NCBI RefSeq assembly: GCF_958298935.1
Contig: NC_084936.1
Location: forward strand, 7,323,501 to 7,387,500
DNA: 64,000 bases
Direction: 5' to 3'
Source of the DNA: Phragmites australis
Lineage: Eukaryota; Streptophyta; Magnoliopsida; Poales; Poaceae
The position numbers and the translations under genes were made by a program. Numbering within the stretch: the first letter of the stretch is position 1; every line of letters starts with the position of its first letter. Below are positions 29,366 through 51,838 of the stretch, one piece after another. The notes under the pieces were generated by a model, which did no database searches, had not been told where the DNA came from, and saw only the letters and a program-made list of their open reading frames with translations.

Positions 29366-29738
29366 GACTCCTTTTCTCTCTCACCCTTTATTCGGAAATC
29401 ATATTGTGAAGATTGTATCCGCTATTACACCACCTCTTAAACATTTCCATAGACATACATTTTCCGTAAAAGCCATATCCAAGTACTTTTCCTTTCAACA
29501 CGAGCCAAGTCACCGCTATTAAAAGCCTTCGTTTCCTTCGTTTCCCTTCTGGAGAGAGCCGTCACTGACTGACTGGAGCCGAGCCGACGCGCGCGTGTCT
29601 GCCGTGGAGCTCTCGTCTGCTGGCTGCCGCTGCTCCTAAAAAAAGTCTCCCTCCCCTTTGGCCCCCTTCCCTTCTCGACTGACCCCACGCCTCGCCGTAA
29701 CCCTAGCCCCCGAGAGGCCCGACGCCATGCGCCCGACG
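29366..29738 (+). promoter_or_regulatory. promoter and first exon of the MBD gene
   Basis: A pyrimidine-rich leader with CCCTAGCCCC, then ATGCGCCCGACG followed by a GTGAGT donor (29739). The donor is strong, so 29738 is a likely exon end. The short frame MRPT joins in phase to exon 2 only at weak acceptors (AG at 31463-31464 or 31466-31467), so this exon may be 5' UTR instead. Confidence 0.45.
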
Positions 29739-31283: not shown

Positions 31284-31476
31284 TCCACCATCACTAATTC
31301 CAACTATTTTAATGAACAATATATTTTGTGTTCCAGTACAAGCCTGTTTTGTTTTACCAGCATGTTTTAAAGATAAGTTTAGGTTCGCGGTCTGCAGCTT
31401 CAGGAAGATTATACTTCTGTTTTTGGTGGAATTCAGCAGGTCTTTGTGCGCTGAAGTGACTGAGAAGGGCAACATT

Positions 31477-34400
31477 ATGCATTCCGGCGGGAGTTCATGT
31501 CCTAAGACACAAAGTGGGGTTGTCAGGGTAAACTACATTATGGATTCTGGCAACAGTTTATGTTCTAGAACACGAAGTGGGCTTGTAAGAGGAAACAGCA
31601 CTATGGATTCCAGTGACGGTTCATGTTCGAGAACACGAAGTGGGCTTGTAAGGGGAAACAGCTTTATGGATTCCAGCGATGGTTCGTGTTTGAGAACACG
31701 AAGTGGGCCTGTAAGGGGAAACATCTTTATGGATTCCAGCGATGGTACATGTTCTAGAACACGAAGTGGGCTTGTGAGAGGAAGCCCCCCTGTTGTCAAG
31801 GTACGCAAGTTTCTGACTTATCCCCCTCACCCCCTCCGTTTATTTCTTAGTGCAGCATGAAAAGTATGTTAGAATTTGCCACTTTTTTTTCATACTAGGC
31901 TCTAAGCAAGGATGAAGCAGTCACGAAGGAGCTTCCTGATGGATGGATGAAAGAAGACATGCCTGTGGGAAAGAGTGGGCATTTGAGACGAAGCCCTACT
32001 GTCAAGGTATGCTATTTTTTTTACTTACTCCCCACTTTTTTGTTTGTTTTGAGTACAGCGTTACAAGTTTGTCAGAATTTGCCACTTCTTAATTCTTATT
32101 CCATACTAGGCTCTAATCAAGGATGAACCAGTCACAAAGGGGCTCCCTGATGGATGTTTGAAAGAAGAAATGCCTTCTAGAACGCGGAGTGGGCTTGTCA
32201 GAGGAAGCCCTATTGTCAAGGTATGAAAAATTTGTCAAATCTGCCACTGCTTCTATTTCTTTGCTAGGCTCTAAGCAAGGACGGACATGTCATTAATGGG
32301 CTGCCTGATGGATGGCACATGGCAGAGAGAAGACATGCCTGTTGGAACACAAAGTGCATTTGTCAGAGGAAGCCCTGCTACCAAGGCATGCAAATTTTCT
32401 TGCTTGCCCTTTTGTTTGTCTTAAGAGTGCTTAAGGGTGCAGCGTGACAAGTATTGTGAGAAATTGTCATTTTTGTTTCATTACTAGACTCTAAGCAAGG
32501 ATAAACCAGTCATTAAGGGGCTGGCTGATGGATGGCTGAAAGAAGACAGGCCTCTTGGTACACGAAGTGGCCTTGTCAGAGGAAACCTTCTTCTCAAGGC
32601 ATGCAAATTTCTTGCTAATCTCCCCGTTTTCATTTGATCTAATAATGCAGCGTGACAAGTATTCTGAAATTGCCACTGTTATTTCATTATTTGGCTCTAA
32701 TCAAGGTTGAACCAGTCACAAAGGGGCAGCCTGATGGATTGCTGAAAGAAGATAAGCCTGCTGGAACGCGAAGTAGCCTTGTCCAAGGAAGCCTTGCTGT
32801 CAAGGCACGCAAGTTTCTAACTAATTCTCCTTTTTGTTTGTTTTAAAGGTGCACCTTGACAAGTATGACAGAATTTGCCACCTAATATTTCATTACTAGA
32901 CTCTAAGCAAGGATGAATCAGTCATTGAGGGGCTGCCTGATGGATGGCGGAAAGAATACAGGCCAAGGAAGAACGGATCATGTCAGAAGAATGATCCGGT
33001 ATGTTGTTAAGATCCTTTTCCTCCTCTTTTTTCTATATCTAAACATCATATCTAAGTCATTGTAACCTACATTTATTTGGGATAAAAAATTGTATATTGA
33101 AAGTACCTTTTACTCTCTCTCTTTCTCTCTCACATCAAAATATCTCAACTTCCGAATGAACGCTAGTGTAATCATACTTCACCTTTGCCTGTTTCCTACC
33201 TTGTAGTATGCTTGTAATGATCCTTGAGTCATTATTGGGTAACTACTGTTGGAAGGATCAAGGATGGCTTGGCGGCAGATGGTGTGGATTAAGACTGGGA
33301 TGAACTTTTAATAATTCTTTCTTGCTTAATCCATAATAATAACAACAACCTACTTAGCTAGAGGTTGTAGTCCCTGAATAACGTAAACTACCTTAAAGGA
33401 AATCTAAAGTACTATGCCTGTAATGATCATTAAGTCATTTTGGGGTATGTACCATTCGATGGATGGTGAGACAGCATGGCTCCCTTTAGAAAGAGGGTAG
33501 AGACCAGAGAGTAAGACCGAGATGAACTTTAATATTTCTTTCTTGCTTAATCCATAATAATAGCAATGGCCTACTCAGATAGAGGTTCTAGTCCCTGAGT
33601 TATGGAAACTATTTTAAAAGAAAACTAAAGATCATGGTTCTTAAGGTGGTAAGGCGAGGTGTGGTGTCCCACCCCCTTCCAGCCGCCTAGGCGCTTAAGG
33701 CGCGTGGCGAGGTGATGCCATACACACATCCTAACCTATAATTGCTGCAGATTTTAGTAGCAGTGTAGCATATATACTTACCTTGGTGCTGCCAATGATC
33801 TGACCTCTCTTCTCTTCCCATCTGTTGTGACTTCTCTTGTCCCATGCAGCAAGCTACACAAAAAATTGAGCTCAGCAGTTAGTACTTATCAACAAAAAGC
33901 CACACGACAATATTGAATAACATGTAAGTGACAAATCTGAGAATTAATATGTAAACAAAGCAAAACATAGCAAAACAGAGCTACTTCTACTTCATATGTA
34001 AACAGAGGCACAGAGCTACTAGCCTTCTCTCTCGTCTGATCGCTGCCGAGAAGAGCAGAAACAAGAGGAGATCCTGATTCCCGGTGCCGAGCAGAGAAGG
34101 CTGAAGAATAGCAGCATCGGGAGGAGGTTCGGCCACCGCTGAGAAGAGCAGCATCGGGAGGAGGTTCAGCTGCCGCCGAGAAGAGCTGCCCGAGGAGATC
34201 CCACAGCCACCGTCGAGCCGCCGCAGCCTCCTACTGGTGTCGCCCGCCACCTCTTTCCCTCTCTCTATTTCTATTTCTATTTCCCTCTCTTTTCCCCGCG
34301 CGGCCCTCTTTTTCCCGCGCGGGACTCTTTTCTCGCTCACCTGCTCGCGCGGCTTGCTGAACGGCGTCCGCCTCAAGCCTCTGGGCGCCATTGCAAGGCC

Positions 34401-37050
34401 TTACTGCACCTAGGCGACGCCACAGACCTCAAGGCAGACGCCATCAGATAGCAAGGCGACGCTGACGCCGATGCCTACCGCTTCAGCTCGCCTCAACGCC
34501 TAGGCAACGCCTTAAAAAGCATGCTAAAGATAGCAACTTACCTACAGGAAATACAGAACTTTTGGCGACGCCTTAAAATGCATGCTAAAGATAGCAACTT
34601 ACCTACAGGAAATACAGAACTTTGTGTTTTCTATGCTATAGAATGTCCTTCATAAATCGTATTTTGCTCACATTGCTTTGTTTACTTTTTATTGAACCCC
34701 TTTTGTTGACCTCTAATTCTTTGGTCACTGCAGTACTACATTGATCCAGTCAGTGGATATGAATTTCGCTCTCTGAAGGATGTGCATCGTTATCTTCAAA
34801 CAGGAGACATCAAACAGTGCGCTACGAGACCAAAGAAGGGAACCATCTATGATGTTTGCATAACAGAAAACCAAACTCATGTGAGTCCCTTGCAGCTTTT
34901 CTTGTTTCATCCATCGGAACATTAGAGGAAACAAATACTAGGTATCATAACTCTGATGCACACCTCAAGTTGAACACATCTGTTCATGATAGATATTGAC
35001 GAGTTTGGTCCTAGTCATGTGATGCTCTAGGCATGTACACCAGCCACTTGCCAACTGCTCTTATCCTGGTTGACTCAGTATCTTACAGAAATTAGGATAT
35101 CACCTATTCATGTTTTTCTTTGTGCCATTTGTGTGGAGACTGGAGAATCAGAGTTTTGACTTCAGATGCACCTTCTATGGTGTAACCAGATCACAAGATT
35201 CAGATGCCTTCTGATATCTGAATACCATTTCATTTTCTAGATCTTATATGAAAATTTAGAAGATGGATTAAAAAAAAATCTTTATATTAATGTCCTTCCA
35301 CTTGCTTTCTCCAATGTTCACTGCTTATTACATTGTTTTGTGGAAACAGACAAGTACATCATCACAACACACAAGGCCAAGTACTGCTGATAAGGCTATT
35401 CAGTGCGAAATATTAACATCAGAAGGTATCATGCTGCTGTCGGAGGAACTTTTTACTCCATATAGAGGAAAGAACACTGAACATACGAAGTTACTAGAGT
35501 CTGAGAGCATGAATGCAATGCAAGGGTATGGCAATAAGCTTGAAACTTTGGAACACAACAGTGTTCAACCAGTCTCTGCACAAGGTGCTCAAAGGCAAAC
35601 CAAATATGTTAAAAGAAAAGAACAAAATGTAGAGGTGAAATTCAAGAAGCGTAAAAGAAGGCCTGCAGCGACACCTGTCCGAGTGTCGCCCCGCTTAGCT
35701 GCACTGAATGTTCAGCATGAAGTAAGCATTGAGCCTGAAGATCAACCGAATAGTGTAAATCTTGTCAACCAGGTACAGACTATAGAAAAGAACACTAATG
35801 ATCAGTCACAGATGAGCCAATCAGGCACCATGAATCAACGACATGGTAATCAGGAAAGCACTTTCAACCAGTTGTGGTCGAGCCAAGCGGACACTGCTAT
35901 CGGAATGCATGCTATGCAGGAAAACACTACCAATCACTTGCAGCCGAGCCAAGTAGACACTGTGAATCATATACAGACGAATCAGGAAAACACTTCCCAT
36001 GAGTTACAGTCAATGCTAGCAGACACTGTCATTCCAATACAGACCATGCAAGAATACACTACCTATCAGCCGAGCCAAGCAGACACTATGAATCATATAC
36101 AAACGAATCAGGAAAACACTGCCCATGCGTTACAGTCGAGCCTAGCAGACACTGTTGTTCCAATACAGACTATGCAGGAATACATTACCGATCAGCCAAG
36201 CCAAGCAGACACTATGAATCATATACATATGAATCAGGAAAACACTGCCAATCAGTTACAGTCAAGCCTAGCAGACATTGTCATTCCAGTAAGTGCTACT
36301 CAGGAATGCACTAGCGATTACTCACAACCGAGCAGTGCTGACTCTATTAATCAAATACAGGCCAATCAGGAAAACACTGCTGCTCAGTTACAGTTAAGCC
36401 AAGCGGACACTGTCACTCAAATACAGATAATGCAGAAAAATATGACCAAGCAATCACAGCTGAGCCAAGCGGACACTGTGAGTCAGATACACATCAATCT
36501 GGAAAACACTACCAATCACATGCAACCAAATTATGCTGAAAATCCTATGCTGCAGGCTAGTTTCTCTTGGGCTTCTGAACAGAATGGCGGAGCTCTTATT
36601 ACAGACTTCTGGAGAAATGTTGAAAATCAGGACTCATCGGTTCCCATGCAAATAGATGGAGCACCTGTTACAAGCTTTCCGGCCAATGTTAAATTCCAAA
36701 ATGCGGCATCAGCAGAACCTGTTATACCGTCAACACAGGCTGCACTGCCTGGAACAGCTTCTGATCAGTCTGGGTTGGCCTTTTCATCTCTTTTTGGAAA
36801 TGTGTGGTCAGATCCATGCATTGAGTTTGCATTCAAGACCCTTACAGGTGACATCCCTGTTCTTGATGACACTGCAGCTGTCACAGGCTACTTTCCTCAG
36901 CAACTAGACTTGAATAAAGGCACAGCAACACCAAATTGTTCAGCTTCCACTTTTGACAATACGAGGAAGCGTACAAAAGTGGATGTCAACCTCCCATTGC
37001 CAAGGCCATCAGATAAGCTCTACAATGGCAGTTGGTTCCCTCCCCAGTGA
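31477..37050 (+). CDS. methyl-CpG-binding-domain protein with tandem exon array
   Basis: A nuclear DNA-binding protein related to plant MBD13-type proteins. Exons: 2 (to 31800), 3 (31899-32006), 4 (32110-32220), 5 (32268-32385), 6 (32488-32598), 7 (32694-32804), 8 (32900-32998), 9 (34734-34880), 10 (35350-37050). Exon 2 holds five 21-residue repeats (MDSSDGSCSRTRSGLVRGN). Exons 3-7 each repeat LPDGW..KED plus RTRSGLVRGSP. Exons 8-9 form a complete MBD: LPDGWRKEYRPRKNGSCQKN, then YYIDPVSGYEFRSLKDVHRY and LQTGD. Exon 10 has a basic nuclear signal (KKRKRRPAATPVRVSPRLAA), about six Q/N-rich repeats and a conserved C-terminal motif (WSDPCIEFAFKTLTGDIPV). Exons are symmetric, phase 0, except exon 5. 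AATAAA lies at 37511. The first ATG is uncertain; 31477 is the first ATG of the repeat frame. Confidence 0.78.
31899..32998 (+). repeat. six tandemly duplicated exons with intron
   Basis: Exons at 31899, 32110, 32268, 32488, 32694 and 32900 share the start CTCTAAGCAAGGATGAACC and a body encoding LPDGW. Five are 108-118 nt; the last is 99 nt and continues the real MBD. The short introns between them are also alike (TTTGCCACTT... CATTACTAG). Spacing is 158-220 bp, so the duplicated unit is exon plus intron. Confidence 0.9.
33203..33628. repeat. ~210-bp tandem duplication in MBD intron 8
   Basis: Two diverged copies share TGTAATGATC, GATGAACTTT.AATA, TTTCTTTCTTGCTTAATCC and GAGGTT.TAGTCCCTGA. 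The hAT-like element is inserted at the end of the second copy. Confidence 0.75.
33633..34523. mobile_element. hAT-like element in MBD intron 8
   Basis: 891 bp with a perfect 8-bp duplication CTAAAGAT (33625-33632 and 34524-34531). Inverted ends read CATGGTTCTTAAGGTGG and CATGCTTTTTAAGGCG. The inside is full of GGCGAGG, CCTAGGCG and AAGGCG motifs and has no transposase, so it is non-autonomous. Confidence 0.82.
34503..34630. repeat. 61-bp duplication spanning hAT right end
   Basis: The last ~20 bp of the element and ~40 bp of flank (GCATGCTAAAGATAGCAACT onward) are repeated once with a 61-bp period. It therefore arose after the insertion. Confidence 0.8.
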
Positions 37051-45661: not shown

Positions 45662-46890
45662 TGCTGAAATGGGTTCACTGTTGGTTGGCGAAAATCTAAG
45701 ATGGATTAGGGGGTTTTAAACAGGATGAAATGCACTTTAAGGAGAAGCTTGAATTGCATGCCTTGCAAACAAGCCTTCTCCTTTCTTCAAGTTTGAGACG
45801 CCAGCCAAGCTTGCATGCACCTCATGAATGCCAAAAAAAAAAGGCATGTCACTGTCAGAATCTTTACATGATCTGACCAGGTAGTTGCTTCAAAGGTGCA
45901 TGTTCCAGTAGCAACAACTCACCATAGGATATATATCCCAGAAAAAAAGTAATAATTAAGTACACTTCAAAGCAACTGTTTCAATCAGGAAGAGAAAAGA
46001 TAGCACATAATTTCGTACCTTTGTAAGGTCAGTGACATGGTGAAATTTATCTTGGTGCCAACGAGGCAGACAAAAAAAAGAAGGCACATTGCCATCACAC
46101 GGCTCAAAAACAGGCTGCCGATGATATTGCTTCAAAAATAAGGTTGACGGACTGATAGTACGCCACAAGACCAACCACTGGATAACAGCAACCACAATTT
46201 CCATGGCCGGAGAGATCTAAGCAAAACTTGCACGGATACATTTCAGCTTTCATGAACATGCTCAGATGAACGGCATTGATCGGGACTTCAAATTGGAAGT
46301 CAAAACTCAAAGCTAGAAGAATTATATGTGAACACTCTTATCTACGACTACTGGAACAATTTGACATTGCTGGTAAGCTCAGGCAGCGGTGAAAGCCTTC
46401 TTCCCACCGCCATCAGTGGATCCGGCCGGAATGACTTTAAGGACGTTGAACCGCACAGTTTTTGACAAAGGTCTGAAGAAAGTAGAGAAATTATACATCA
46501 GCATCGAATAAAAGTACAGAACCACATAAAAATGAGTGATTCATGCCCTGGTTCACAAAACAAAACCAACTAAGAACCAGTAATCCTGGCTAGTTCTTGG
46601 GATCATGGCAAATTTCATAAATGCCTAGACCAACAACAAAAACTAAAAAGATGGAATAACGACCATGGTTAACGAAATCCAACCATCCTGGAACCATTAT
46701 ATCCAGGCAAGTTTTCAGAATCACATTAAATTCTTGCCAAGGGCAAAATTACAGTGACAAAAAGTCACTGGACTACTGATAATGATTGGTAAATAGACCA
46801 AGATCGATCGTTTGAGCTCTAGCCTCGACATGATGGTGATTGGCAAATAGACCAAGATTGATTGTTGAGCTTTGGTCTGACATAACATCA
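45662..46890 (-). other. pectinesterase upstream region with a coding-like fragment
   Basis: Mostly non-genic. At 46490-46385 the minus strand reads [20 protein letters not shown] followed by GKKAFTAA and a TGA, which looks like the last exon of a conserved basic protein, but I do not recognise it. No matching upstream exon was found. Confidence 0.25.
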
Positions 46891-49800
46891 AGGAGACAGA
46901 GCAGTGATGGATGAGTTCCTCAACCTAAAGCAAGGAGATAGGGCAGTGATGGATTATGTGCAGGAGTTCAATTCTCTGGCTCAGTATGCGCCGGAATATG
47001 TCTCCACCGACAAGCAAAGGCAAGAGTGCTTTATGGACGGACTGTCCACGAGAATGCAAAAGAGACTCTCCGCCCATAGCTTTGACGATTTCAACATGTT
47101 GGTGAGCAAGTCAGTTATGGTGGAATACAAGTTGAAAAAGCATCAAGATGAGAAGAAGCGCAAGAGGGAGGAAAAGCTTTCTGATGAAGACAACAAACTA
47201 TATGTGGGCGTGGGACAGTCGCTAGTGTCTCATGCAACGGTCGTAGCACCTCCACAATCTATGTGCTTGGCCCATTCTTCTCAGTCTCAAGAAGCCACCC
47301 AAAAGCAAAGGAACAACTCAAGACGTGGAAAAAGGAGGCCGTGCTTTAATTGCGGCCAGTTTGGGCACTTTGCCCAAGTTTGTTCTCATGCAAAGCAAGA
47401 CGGTGTGGTAAATATCCCAATTATGCCATCACCTCTTGGTTCACAAAAGATCCCAGCTCTGAAGCAGGGGAATGTTAACATCGCCACCATTGAGGATGCC
47501 CAGAAGGAGATTGATGTGCTCTTGAGTACGCTCCCCGTCAACTCTCACCCAATGACAGTGCTCTTTGATTCTGGAGCGTCTCATTGCTTTGTCCAGCGGA
47601 GTTGTGCCATGACTTCTAAAACACAGATACTTCAATTAGGTGCCGTATCCGATACGTGATACGCCTCCGATACACCACGGATACGTATCGGAGAAGTATC
47701 AGAATAAAAATGAATAACATAATTCGGGATACTTGGTCCGATATGTATCAGCCCATCTTCACGATACGGCCTAGCCCAAGAGAGGTACTCCACGCAAACG
47801 AGCGTACATTAGGCGAACGAACTGGCGTTCCCTACCACAGCCGTCTTCACTCTTCACGCACACGGGCGCATGTCGCAGGAGAGATGCGCCGCCTCCCATT
47901 CACCCCGACTCCAGCGACGGCGACTGGAGTCGGTGAGGTGACTGGTTGTATGCACGACGGTGGCTACATACGCTTGAGTTGCAAGCCATGTCTTTTGGAG
48001 ATGTGGAGGTTGCTGTTAGGGAGAATTAAGCAAATGATGATTAAGAAGAAGCCTAGGTGGATTGATGGAGGATGAACTTGCAAGCTGCATTATCATTTCC
48101 TAAATTTGAGATTGTTATGTTATTGACTTATTGTTATGTAATAGAGCTTTAAGTAGAACCTGAACTGCGAACTGATGACTTTGAACTCTATCTCTATGGC
48201 TTATTGTTGTGAACTGCTATGTCAATTTCAATATATGTGAACTGCTATGTTGTGAACTGCATATGTGCAGTAGCTATGTGCTAATTGTTATGCTATCTGA
48301 TTCAATAAGGAGGCTGGCTGGAACTGGAAGGGGAAAAGGTGTTGTAATTCATTATTTCAATATGTTTTTCCCCCAAGTTTTTACACTATGCTACTTGGAT
48401 CATTGGATTGGTTGTTGGAAAAGAGAGAAGAAACATCACAAGAACAAGGTAATTTGTTCATGCTACTATAGTTTATATGCACTATATTACTTTTTTTAAA
48501 AATAGTAAAACGTATCCACGTATCAGAGTTTTTGGGAAAATGGCGTATTCGTGTATCCGTATCGGCCCGATACCGATACACGTATCCGTATCGATGCTAC
48601 ATAGGCCATGACCCATGCCTTTGCCATACAAGTCATGCCTACTCCCTATATCATATCATCAACCGGTGCGAAGATGCTCACGAAGGATATAGTTCGGCAT
48701 GCTCGGATTCTCATAAATGGGGTAGCCTTCCAAGCTAATTTGATTGTGATGGACGCGATGGGCTTGGATGTTATCTTAGGGATAAATTGGTTGACCCAAA
48801 ATAATGCAGTCATCAAGTGTGCACCGAGGTCCATTTCTCTTGCAAGTCCTTCCAGTGGTCATGTCACCTTATGCCTTGACGAGACTGGTCCACGTCTTTG
48901 TGAAACGAATGTTGATGTCTTCGCGGATCTTTCTCATATTCCCATGGTGTGTGATTACCAGCGGATATAAGGAAACGAACGCATAAGCACACGAGTTTCC
49001 GGATGTCTTTTCGGATGAGTTACCAGGAATGCCACCTGATCAGGAAGTCGAGTTCGCCATTGAGCTTGTGCCTGGAACAGCTCCAATATTCAAGTGTTCC
49101 TACCAAATGCCGCCAAATGAGTTAGCAGAGTTGAAGAAGCAAATTCAAGAGTTACTAGCGAAGGGTTTCATTCGTCCGAGCTCCTCACCTTGGGGATGCC
49201 CAGCGCTCTTTGTGAAGAAGAAGGATCAATCTTTGAGGATGTGCGTCGATTACTATCCGTTGAATGCAGTCACTATCAAGAACAAGTACCCACTCCCTCA
49301 GATTGATATTCTTTTTGATCAGTTGATCAGTGCTCAGGTATTCTCCAAAATTGATTTGAGGTTGGGCTATCATCAGATAAAAAGCCGACCAGAGAACATT
49401 CCAAAGACAGCTTTCTCTTCTCGCTATGGACTGTATGAGTTCACAGTTATGTCCTGCAACCTAACCAATGCACCGGCATATTTCATGTACTTGATGAACA
49501 CAATTTTTATGGAAGAGCTTGACCAGTTTGTCGTGGTTTTCATCAACAACATTCTCATTTACTCCAAGACTGAAGAAGAACATGCCGGTCATCTCCATGT
49601 CATTCTTGAGAGACTTAGGAAACATCGCCTCTATGCCAAACTCAGCAAGTGTGATTTTTGGCTAAAGGAAGTCTCTTTTCTCGGACATATTCTTTCTGAA
49701 GGTGGCATCACCATTGACTCGAGTAAGGTGCATGATGTACTCAATTGGGTGCAACCCTAGAGTGTCACCGACATCCGTAGTTTTCTCGAACTTGCGGGTT

Positions 49801-51838
49801 CTTACCGCCGGTTCATCGAGAATTTCTCCAAGATTGCAAAGCCGATGACTGAGTTGTTGAAGAAGAATGTCAAATTTGAATGGTCTGATGAGTGTGAAGC
49901 GGCTTTCCAGACTTTGAAGTCCCGCCTCACTACAGCTCCAGTTCTAGCACAACCGGATATTTACAAGAGCTTTGATGTGTATTGCGATGCCTCTCGCATC
50001 GGGCTCGGTTGTGTTCTTATGCAAGAGGGCCGAGTGGTTTCTTATGCTTCACGCTAGTTGAAGCACATGAGGAGAACTGCCCTACTCACGATGTGGTGCT
50101 TGCAGCAGTTGTCCATGCTCTGAAGATCCAGCAGCACTATCTCCTCTGAATGTGTGCAACGTCTATACCGATCACAAGAGCCTCAAATACATTTTCACTC
50201 AAGTCGACCTCAACATGAGGCAAAGGAGATGGCTGGAGCTGATTAAGGACTATGAGTTGGAGGTCCATTATCATCCGGGCAAGACTAACATCGTTGCTGA
50301 TGCCTTGAGTCGGAAAGCCTAGTGTAACTGCCTTATGATCTCGCCGGTGGATTCCACCCTTTGTGATGAATTCTAGAGGCTCAGACTAGAAATGGTCTCG
50401 GAAGGTTTTCTTGCTAACCTAGAGATCAAATCTACCCTCCTCGACCAAATCAAGGAGGCTCAGAAGGAGGATAGAGGCATGGAGAGGATTCAGGGTAAGC
50501 TCAGTGAAGGACAAGCCAAGTGCTTCACTCTTGATGATGAGGGTATTCTGTGGTTTGGGAAGAGACTAGTGGTTCCTAAAAACCCGGAACTGAGAAAGAA
50601 GATACTAGATGAAGAGCATGACTCATTGCTATCTATTCACCCGGGAAGTACCAAGATGTATTTGGATTTGAAGCAAAGATTTTGGTGGACTCGCATGAAG
50701 CGAGAAATTGCTCGTTATGTATATGAGTGTGACGTTTGCCGAAGGGTGAAAGCCGAACATCTCAAGCCGACCGGTACGCTTCAGCCTTTACCCATTCTTT
50801 CCTGGAAGTGGGAGGAGGTCAGAATGGATTTCATTACCAGTTTGCCGAAGACCTCACATGGTTATGACTCGATTTGGGTCATTGTAGACTGATTGACCAA
50901 GTCGGCTCATTTTCTTCCTGTCAAGACCACATATTCAGTCAAGCAATATGCGGAGCTGTACCTCACATGAATAGTTTACCTTCATGGGATTCCAAAGACG
51001 ATCGTTTCCGATTGAGGCACTCAATTCACCTCTCACTTCTGGAGAAGCCTGCACGAGGCTATGGGAACTAACTTGTTCCATAGCATAGCGTTCCATCCAC
51101 AAACTGACGAACAAACTGAGGGGGTGAATCAGATTTTGGAAGATATGTTGCGGGCATGTGTTCTCACCTATGGGAAAAAGTGGGAGATTTTCTTGCCGTT
51201 TGCGGAGTTTTCCTACAATAATAGTTACCAAGCCAACATCCAAATGGCTCCATTTGAAGCTCTCTATGGAAGGAGGTGCAGAACCCTATTGAATTGGTCC
51301 GAGTCCAGCGAGAGGGTTTTCTTAGGCCTGGACTATTCTCCAGTGTCTCCTCATGGCTCAATCCCAACAGAAAAGCTATGCAGATCGCCATCGACGAGAG
51401 CTAGTTTTCACCGTTGGAGGTTATGTCTATCTCAAAGTGTCACCTCTCAAAGGGGTTCGACGCTTTCAAGTCAGAGGGAAGTTAGCACCTCGATATGTGG
51501 GACTGTTCCGGATCATTTCTCGGCGTGGAGAGGTGGCCTATCAATTGGACTTGCCTCCGTCCCTCTCCGCCTTTCATAACGTGTAACACGTGTCGCAATT
51601 AAAGAAGTGCATTCGAGTTCCAACTGAAGTCATTGAAATGGTGAATCAAGAATTGCAACTGAACCTCTCATATTGTGAGCGCCCACTACAGATCTTGGAT
51701 GAAGAGGAACGCAAGACTCGATGACAATCCATAAAGTTTATCAAGGTCCAATGGAGCAACCACACCGAGGACGAAGCAACGTGAGAGCGGGAGGATAAAA
51801 TCCGCTCTGAGTATCCCGAGCTATTTGAGAGCTTGTAA
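46890..51838 (+). mobile_element. Ty3/Gypsy retrotransposon coding region (defective)
   Basis: gag from 46904 (LKQGDRAVMDYVQEFNSLAQ) with a CCHC knuckle CFNCGQFGHFAQVC near 47343. Protease VLFDSGASHCFV near 47560. A hAT-like insertion at 47614-48604. RT from 49029 ([20 protein letters not shown]) with FINNILIYS near 49541, where active RTs have F-x-D-D. RNase H 49845-50057 (FDVYCDASRIGLGCVLM). Integrase HHCC finger (IHPGSTKMYLDLKQRFWW, CDVCRRVKAEH) and core with stops at 50890 and 50968. A C-terminal domain runs to 51838 (KIRSEYPELFESL). Several stops and frameshifts. The 5' LTR and PBS are absent, so it is 5'-truncated. Confidence 0.85.
47614..48604. mobile_element. 991-bp insertion in Gypsy protease, 8-bp duplication
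   Basis: Flanked by GCCATGAC on both sides (47606-47613 and 48605-48612). Removing it restores the frame ...SCAMTHAFAIQV. It contains GATACGTGATACG/CGTATCCGTATCGG inverted motifs at both ends (47645-47700 and 48510-48595). The 8-bp duplication suggests hAT; the terminal bases themselves are poorly matched. Confidence 0.75.

What the first reader, a model, noticed from the sequence alone, without database searches (positions are those of the whole stretch)
31477..35350. MBD gene with five 21-residue repeats and a six-exon tandem array repeating half of the MBD
Known plant MBD proteins carry one to three complete domains. Here five exons each encode only the front part (LPDGWxKE) plus a basic RTRSGLVRG motif, with no matching back half; only the last exon pair builds a full domain. 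The same RTRSGLVRG motif is the core of the five repeats in exon 2. This looks like expansion of a basic repeat module from a DNA-binding domain exon. All units but one are symmetric phase 0, so any subset can be spliced in.
Basis: partly seen in the sequence, partly recalled or inferred. Interest (0 to 1): 0.75.

Follow-up and report, generated by a model that had tools for sequence, protein, structure and literature searches.

The report
Grass methyl-DNA reader with motif array
This grass gene for a methylated-DNA-binding protein has copied one short motif again and again, partly by fusing it to the front half of the DNA-binding domain, and related grasses have kept the core of that motif almost unchanged.

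Summary
The array is real and not an assembly artefact. The gene is the grass MBD13-like methyl-CpG-binding-domain gene; 20 of 38 homologues carry both repeat types by a strict count. Only the last exon pair makes a complete domain (PF01429).

Two corrections matter. First, the five partial exons are hybrids: their heads match the MBD front exon, but their tails match the end of exon 2, not the MBD exon. The RTRSGLVRG motif therefore entered the array from exon 2. Exon 2 looks like a multiplied N-terminal leader, start codon included, that is single in a sister gene. Second, not every unit is usable here: U3 is frameshifted, U5 has lost its splice acceptor, and U3-U5 have GC donors.

In relatives, contigs too short for the introns read several units in series. 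The array is predicted to be disordered. The motif core is the best-kept part (0.99 in U2, 0.96 in U4). U2's head is looser (0.59), U4's is not (0.78).

My reading: a chain of short linear motifs tethered to one MBD. The anatomy is well supported; the molecular role is inferred. New variant of a known kind.

The parts
31477..31800 (+). Exon 2 (coding part): five 21-codon repeats (31477-31791), each starting with an in-frame ATG; core S-R/K-T-R-S-G-L-V-R; ends phase 0 with GTCAAG|gtacgc
31899..32006 (+). Unit U1, hybrid half-MBD exon, phase 0, motif decayed (ELPDGWMKEDMPVGKSGHLRRSPTVK)
32110..32220 (+). Unit U2, hybrid half-MBD exon, phase 0, LPDGC, intact SRTRSGLVRG
32268..32385 (+). Unit U3, 118 nt, frameshifted by a 7-bp insertion, GC donor; an internal AG acceptor would give in-frame 32326-32385
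   Evidence: compare P0007 and P0009
32488..32598 (+). Unit U4, hybrid half-MBD exon, phase 0, GC donor, intact TRSGLVRG
32694..32804 (+). Unit U5, hybrid half-MBD exon, open frame, acceptor TTG instead of TAG, GC donor; probably not spliced in
32900..32998 (+). Unit U6, front exon of the only complete MBD (GLPDGWRKEYRPRKNGSCQKNDP), phase 0
34734..34880 (+). Back exon of the complete MBD (YYIDPVSGYEFRSLKDVHRYLQTGDI...), phase 0
35350..37050 (+). Last coding exon, with its own Q/N-rich repeats and the conserved C-terminal SDPCIEFAFKTLTGDIPVL

Best explanation
An MBD13-like grass gene with one complete MBD has built up an N-terminal chain of the short motif S-[RK]-T-R-S-G-L-V-R by two kinds of tandem duplication. 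(1) An N-terminal leader of about 21 codons, start codon included, was copied in tandem inside exon 2; this is inferred from the sister gene, where it is single. (2) A segment running from the tail of exon 2 across the intron into the head of the MBD front exon was copied in tandem in the PACMAD clade. That made phase-0 hybrid exons: half-MBD head plus motif tail. This step is supported at DNA level in the window, and an extra copy of the same kind is seen at protein level in one finger millet protein. In relatives the units are read in series. The chain is predicted to be disordered, and the motif core is its best-kept part; the half-MBD heads probably act mainly as spacers (clearer for U2 than for U4). 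Inferred mechanism: each motif is a weak binding site for DNA/nucleosome or a chromatin partner, so the chain adds avidity or recruits partners while the single MBD supplies recognition of methylated CG. I put about 0.85 on the evolutionary anatomy and 0.4 on the avidity/recruitment role; binding directly to DNA rather than to a protein is a coin toss.
For: Hybrid origin: heads and upstream introns of U1-U6 alike (z 8.4-15.0 and 3.4-9.7), tails of U1-U5 like exon 2 but not U6, and exon 2's downstream intron most like those of U4 and U5 (z about 4 and 6; U3 and U6 only 1.2-1.5). Clade split of tails: 60 of 61 PACMAD units against 2 of 19 BOP units score closer to the exon-2 tail. The same duplication again: finger millet protein P0025 carries two extra [exon-2-tail + unit-head] copies that are absent in P0013 of the same species. 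Single-leader state: of 41 rows, ten short grass sister proteins start with the leader and two carry it further in, and none of these 12 has a second copy before its MBD. Read in series in relatives: P0018 (825 aa, 3395-nt contig), P0011 (877 aa, 4240 nt) and P0001 (954 aa, 3558 nt), whereas P0026, P0032 and P0085 from the same kinds of source run into intron sequence, so these sources do not splice. Motif kept: in-register U2, core 0.99, tail 0.88, head 0.59 (17 sequences); U4, core 0.96, tail 0.80, head 0.78 (13). U2 has lost the MBD tryptophan in 20 of 20. Window pN/pS: 0.45 in the exon-2 core, 0.97 in its spacer, 1.25 in unit heads (1.00 without U5). Disorder: P0010 model, all 28 ten-residue blocks over 1-280 have mean pLDDT 28-42, the MBD 86-94; nearest solved folds AtMBD5 and AtMBD6.
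Against: No transcript of this species was seen. Unit tails in the window show no constraint (pN/pS 1.15, three sequences), U1 has lost the motif, and U3 and U5 are damaged, so part of the array is decaying here. U4's head is as well kept as its tail (0.78 against 0.80) and keeps its tryptophan in 8 of 13, so 'head as mere spacer' is not shown for U4. Maize protein P0014 keeps one non-terminal unit, so most units are dispensable. Only 5 of the 12 sister leaders match T[RQ]SGxVR exactly; the others are looser, and the leader could also have been reduced secondarily there. The pN/pS counts are small, pairs are not independent, the orthologues are related and many are gene models. The net charge of the repeats is modest, which weakens a pure DNA-binding reading. 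No ligand of the motif came from any call.
Confidence: 0.45

Rival explanations
1. The array is mostly a by-product of a slippage- and recombination-prone locus. Phase-0 units are tolerated because they add harmless disordered residues, and they are slowly lost.
For: Heads and tails of the window units show pN/pS near 1; U3 is frameshifted, U5 lacks an acceptor, U1 motif decayed; non-terminal units vary from 1 (P0014) to 5 (P0001, P0010); the last exon has yet another repeat array, which suggests a repeat-prone gene.
Against: U2 keeps S[RK]TRSGL[VIA]R in all 20 PACMAD sequences compared, while its head diverges. The exon-2 core is more conserved than most of its spacer in both clades.
Confidence: 0.35
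2. The units are alternative front halves that compete to join the single back half, giving MBDs with different L1 loops.
For: All boundaries but U3's are phase 0. Maize protein P0016 joins a U2 tail directly to YYIDPVSGYEF.
Against: P0001, P0011 and P0018 carry the units in series with a U6. The MBD tryptophan is lost from U2 in 20 of 20. The U2 and U4 tails of the window lack the D before YY. P0016 is only a gene model, and P0018, nearly identical over the shared part by eye, has U4-U6.
Confidence: 0.07
3. The half-units fold or self-associate into MBD-like DNA-binding modules.
For: Heads keep the DGW pattern in U1, U4 and U6 of the window; U4's head is well kept among orthologues (0.78) with the tryptophan in 8 of 13.
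Against: No Pfam hit; P0010 model has pLDDT 28-42 and no strand over the units; heads show no constraint within the window.
Confidence: 0.04
4. Assembly artefact or dead gene.
For: U3 and U5 are damaged.
Against: A like array occurs in proteins from many separate grass assemblies and in short contigs read as one frame. The long last exon, the MBD and the C-terminus are open and conserved.
Confidence: 0.03

Closest known systems
Grass MBD13-like proteins (e.g. Panicum hallii P0002, Stipagrostis P0010, maize 'Methyl-CpG-binding domain-containing protein 13' P0014)
   Same: Same architecture: exon-2 motif repeats, half-MBD units, one complete MBD, Q/N-rich repeats, SDPCIEFAFKTLTGDIPVL C-terminus
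   Different: Number and state of units differ; in the window U3 and U5 are damaged. BOP grasses mostly have units with MBD-exon-like tails instead of motif tails
Short grass sister proteins (P0041-P0043, P0048, P0052, P0077 and others)
   Same: N-terminal leader MDS..xTRSGxVR, exact or loose, followed by one MBD; related C-terminus
   Different: One leader copy, no half-units
Arabidopsis MBD5/MBD6
   Same: Closest solved MBD structures to the complete domain
   Different: Short proteins without motif arrays (recalled, not checked here)
Arabidopsis MBD7
   Same: Repetition inside one MBD protein (three MBD domains: passage in PMC5462541)
   Different: Repeats complete domains; here only a front half plus an unrelated motif is repeated
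Primulina MBD13-like proteins (P0034, P0035)
   Same: Internal duplication of the MBD region; P0034 also has front halves without back halves (by eye)
   Different: Six PF01429 stretches; the motif pattern finds no TRSGLV in them

Membership tests
[quoted passage not shown]
   PF01429, 42 bits, cut-off 21, E 7.1e-11, on U6+back exon
[quoted passage not shown]
   Model of orthologue P0010 (not of the window protein), pLDDT 86-94 over the MBD; best PDB matches AtMBD5 7feo and AtMBD6 7fef, probability 0.99, E 0.036 and 0.056; none of 21 matches reached E 0.001 with the whole 901-residue model as query
[quoted passage not shown]
   The aligned R, D, Y and FRS positions of AtMBD6 are present (AtMBD5 has F at the Y); which of them contact DNA is recalled. 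Binding was not measured
Grass MBD13-like orthologue group | End-to-end similarity including C-terminus | tested here: met
   16 of 17 PACMAD-type hits that span the array and cover at least 86% of the query have 54-64% identity, the other (P0016) 53%; conserved columns in A2 (window not in it)
Cassette-exon array with free choice of units | Each unit has an acceptor, a donor and phase 0 | tested here: not met
   U3 frameshifted, U5 acceptor TTG
Mutually exclusive exon cluster | Only one unit per transcript | tested here: inconclusive
   P0001, P0011 and P0018 of relatives carry several units in series, which speaks against it; no transcript of this species was available

The most novel reading that the evidence does not exclude
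S[RK]TRSGLVR is an undescribed grass-specific chromatin-binding motif. It was born as a protein N-terminus and multiplied, start codon included, then spread into hybrid half-domain exons, so that copy number tunes how tightly a methyl-DNA reader with one domain holds chromatin.
Probability: 0.25. Interest if true: 0.7.

Novelty: new variant of a known kind. Interest (0 to 1): 0.5.

Why it matters
It shows how a piece of protein can multiply without ever copying a complete domain: a duplication crossing an intron fuses a motif exon to a half-domain exon and keeps the frame, and the motif core is what stays constant afterwards. Because grass species differ in copy number, the locus is a natural dose series for asking whether motif arrays tune a DNA-methylation reader.

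Tried and rejected
Rejected: the motif in the units being the MBD exon's own L1 loop. At DNA level the tails match exon 2 and not U6. A deeper link is not excluded: sister protein P0041 has an MBD loop reading RKTRSGSRIKGDSF and a Musa MBD reads KTTRSGTV, but such short likenesses can arise by chance.

Rejected: a coding first exon at 29728 (ATGCGCCCGACG). Joined to the acceptor ending at 31439 it gives a stop after a few codons, by hand reading, so I take it as 5' leader; not confirmed by transcripts.

Led nowhere: PDB sequence search with exon 2 (best E 0.44); paper search for the motif letters (0 papers). Searches on MBD genes in plants, rice, maize, wheat and Poaceae and on exon duplication with half domains listed no paper whose title or abstract start describes this array; the listings were partial (20 of 53, 15 of 50, 10 of 120). 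I saw passages only of PMC7893954, PMC5462541 and PMC8900393.

Limits: the species was not determined; the hit with the highest identity is Arundo donax P0015 (80% over the 67% it covers). The count taken loosely gives 25 of 38 homologues, but its repeat hits include unit tails and P0013 has overlapping heads; the strict recount gives 20 of 38. In one search, 5 of 57 PACMAD and 6 of 59 BOP repeat rows were dropped because the anchor pattern was absent, the anchor itself favours the core, and at least two kept rows (P0006 last, P0014 last) are unit tails. In one search sequences were picked by a pattern that includes part of the motif; for U2 all 19 PACMAD proteins given plus the window passed. 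Its U2 and U4 head figures (0.49, 0.56) mixed rows out of register, and the P0021 row under U4 is another unit. I recounted with in-register rows only: 17 of 20 for U2 (dropped P0006, P0013, P0025) and 13 of 16 for U4 (dropped P0004, P0021, P0025); the order U2, U4, U5, U6 (with U3 where present) holds by best match in most PACMAD proteins, with a misfit in P0001 and in P0011, and not in Aristida P0021, whose four non-terminal units all match U2 best; no unit of any protein picked window U1. One search was given 15 of 19 PACMAD and 7 of 10 BOP proteins.

Full report
What is there. The gene lies on the + strand. Its coding part runs from ATG 31477 to the stop ending at 37050, with all exon boundaries in phase 0 except U3. 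Exon 2 holds five 63-bp repeats (31477-31791). Six exon-like units follow. Five (U1-U5) have only an MBD-like head. The sixth (32900-32998) joins 34734-34880 to make the one complete MBD (PF01429, 42 bits). The last exon carries a third, Q/N-rich repeat array and a conserved C-terminus.

State of the units. Acceptors are TAG in U1, U2, U3, U4 and U6 but TTG in U5. Donors are GT after E2, U1, U2 and U6 but GC after U3, U4 and U5. U3 is 118 nt long with a 7-bp insertion (ATGGCAC next to ATGGCAG) that shifts its frame. An AG inside U3 would give 60 in-frame nucleotides, and two Panicum virgatum proteins begin U3 at that point. So in this species U1, U2, U4 and U6 are usable, U3 possibly in short form, and U5 probably not.

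Where the units come from. Pairwise alignment against shuffles gives a clear pattern. The first 57 nt of all six units are alike (z 8.4-15.0), and so are the 60 nt upstream (z 3.4-9.7). The last 45 nt of U1-U5 match the last 45 nt of exon 2 (z 5.9-10.8) and do not match U6 (z -0.8 to 1.2). The intron after exon 2 begins most like the introns after U4 and U5 (z about 4 and 6), less like those after U1 and U2 (about 3), and not clearly like those after U3 and U6 (1.2-1.5). The simplest history is a tandem duplication of [tail of exon 2 - intron - head of MBD exon]. It makes a phase-0 hybrid exon in one step and explains why the motif occurs in both places and why no back half was copied. By eye the join lies between GAAAGAA and AGAAC.

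Relatives. A homologue search with the spliced protein gave 38 proteins: 28 from named grasses, 5 unnamed that match grass sequence, and 5 from Primulina, Ananas and Typha. Twenty of the 38 have at least two motif repeats upstream of at least three unit heads, the terminal one included. In most PACMAD proteins the unit order U2, U4, U5, U6, with U3 where present, is recognisable by best match; P0001 and P0011 have one misfit each and Aristida P0021 does not show the order. In BOP grasses 17 of 19 non-terminal units score closer to the MBD-exon tail, whereas in PACMAD 60 of 61 score closer to the exon-2 tail. Finger millet protein P0025 has two extra, nearly identical hybrid copies that P0013 lacks, which looks like a recent event of the same kind (both are gene models).

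Origin of the motif. A sister group of short grass proteins begins MDS..xTRSGxVR and then has one MBD. Of 41 rows examined, ten begin with this leader and two more carry it further in; five of these twelve match T[RQ]SGxVR exactly and the rest are looser. None of the twelve has a second copy before the MBD. The remaining rows start downstream, are truncated or have another N-terminus. Zizania P0041 and P0042 also have TRSG inside the MBD itself. Each of the five window repeats begins with ATG in the same register. I infer that exon 2 is a multiplied N-terminus.

Expression. P0001, P0011 and P0018 come from contigs of 3.4-4.2 kb and read several units, the complete MBD and the last exon as one open frame. 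P0026, P0032 and P0085 from the same kinds of source run into intron sequence before the last exon. So these sources do not splice, and I infer that the first three are cDNA. P0018 is close to maize P0016. Nothing was seen for the window's own species.

Selection and structure. Among in-register PACMAD sequences U2 has core identity 0.99, tail 0.88 and head 0.59 (17 rows); the MBD tryptophan is absent from U2 in all 20 rows. U4 has core 0.96, tail 0.80 and head 0.78, with the tryptophan in 8 of 13. So the motif core is the best-kept part of both units, but only U2's head is clearly loose. Exon-2 repeats: core positions carry 3.1-4.3 bits, spacer positions 1.4-2.9, apart from the S four before the anchor in both clades and the C after it in PACMAD. 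Within the window pN/pS is 0.45 for the exon-2 core, 0.97 for its spacer, 1.25 for five unit heads (1.00 without U5) and 1.15 for three unit tails, all from small counts. AlphaFold on P0010 with 30 sequences folds only the MBD with confidence; the 28 ten-residue means over residues 1-280 are 28-42. Closest solved structures are AtMBD5 and AtMBD6.

Mechanism. Supported by sequence: hybrid duplication, phase, conservation of the motif core, and units read in series in relatives. Predicted: disorder. Inferred: the motif is a weak binding site whose repetition adds avidity or partner recruitment to a single MBD. A mostly neutral, slowly decaying array is the main rival and fits U1, U3, U5 and the low unit count in maize P0014.

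Verdict. The interpretation needs its direction reversed, and the free-splicing claim needs limiting. No paper describing the array was found in the searches listed, some of which showed only part of their hits.

Noticed in passing
window 35809-36518: Third tandem array in the same gene: about nine 66-bp (and 126-bp) repeats coding Q/N-rich 22-residue units, with related sequence in the grass homologues.
   Followed up: partly
window 32999-34733: The intron that splits the MBD is 1.7 kb long and holds a GC-rich repeat-like insert (about 33630-34525, by eye) and a 61-bp tandem duplication (34503-34623).
   Followed up: no
window 46886-51579: Broken reading frames that look like a degenerate Ty3/gypsy-type retrotransposon (zinc knuckle, reverse transcriptase and integrase-like peptides, by eye).
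   Followed up: no
P0034, P0035 (Primulina): A dicot MBD13-like gene with six PF01429 stretches; P0034 also has front halves followed by unrelated sequence instead of the back half.
   Followed up: partly
P0025 against P0013 (Eleusine coracana): Two extra hybrid units in one finger millet protein that the other lacks: probably a recent duplication of the same kind.
   Followed up: partly
window U3-U5 donors (32386, 32599, 32805): Three successive GC donors. Proteins of Dichanthelium (P0012) and Miscanthus (P0008) read through at corresponding sites, which suggests shared GC donors (for P0008, for P0012).
   Followed up: partly
window 31477-31791: Every exon-2 repeat carries its own in-frame ATG; by eye the second and third have a better start context than the first, so shorter N-termini by leaky scanning are possible.
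   Followed up: no
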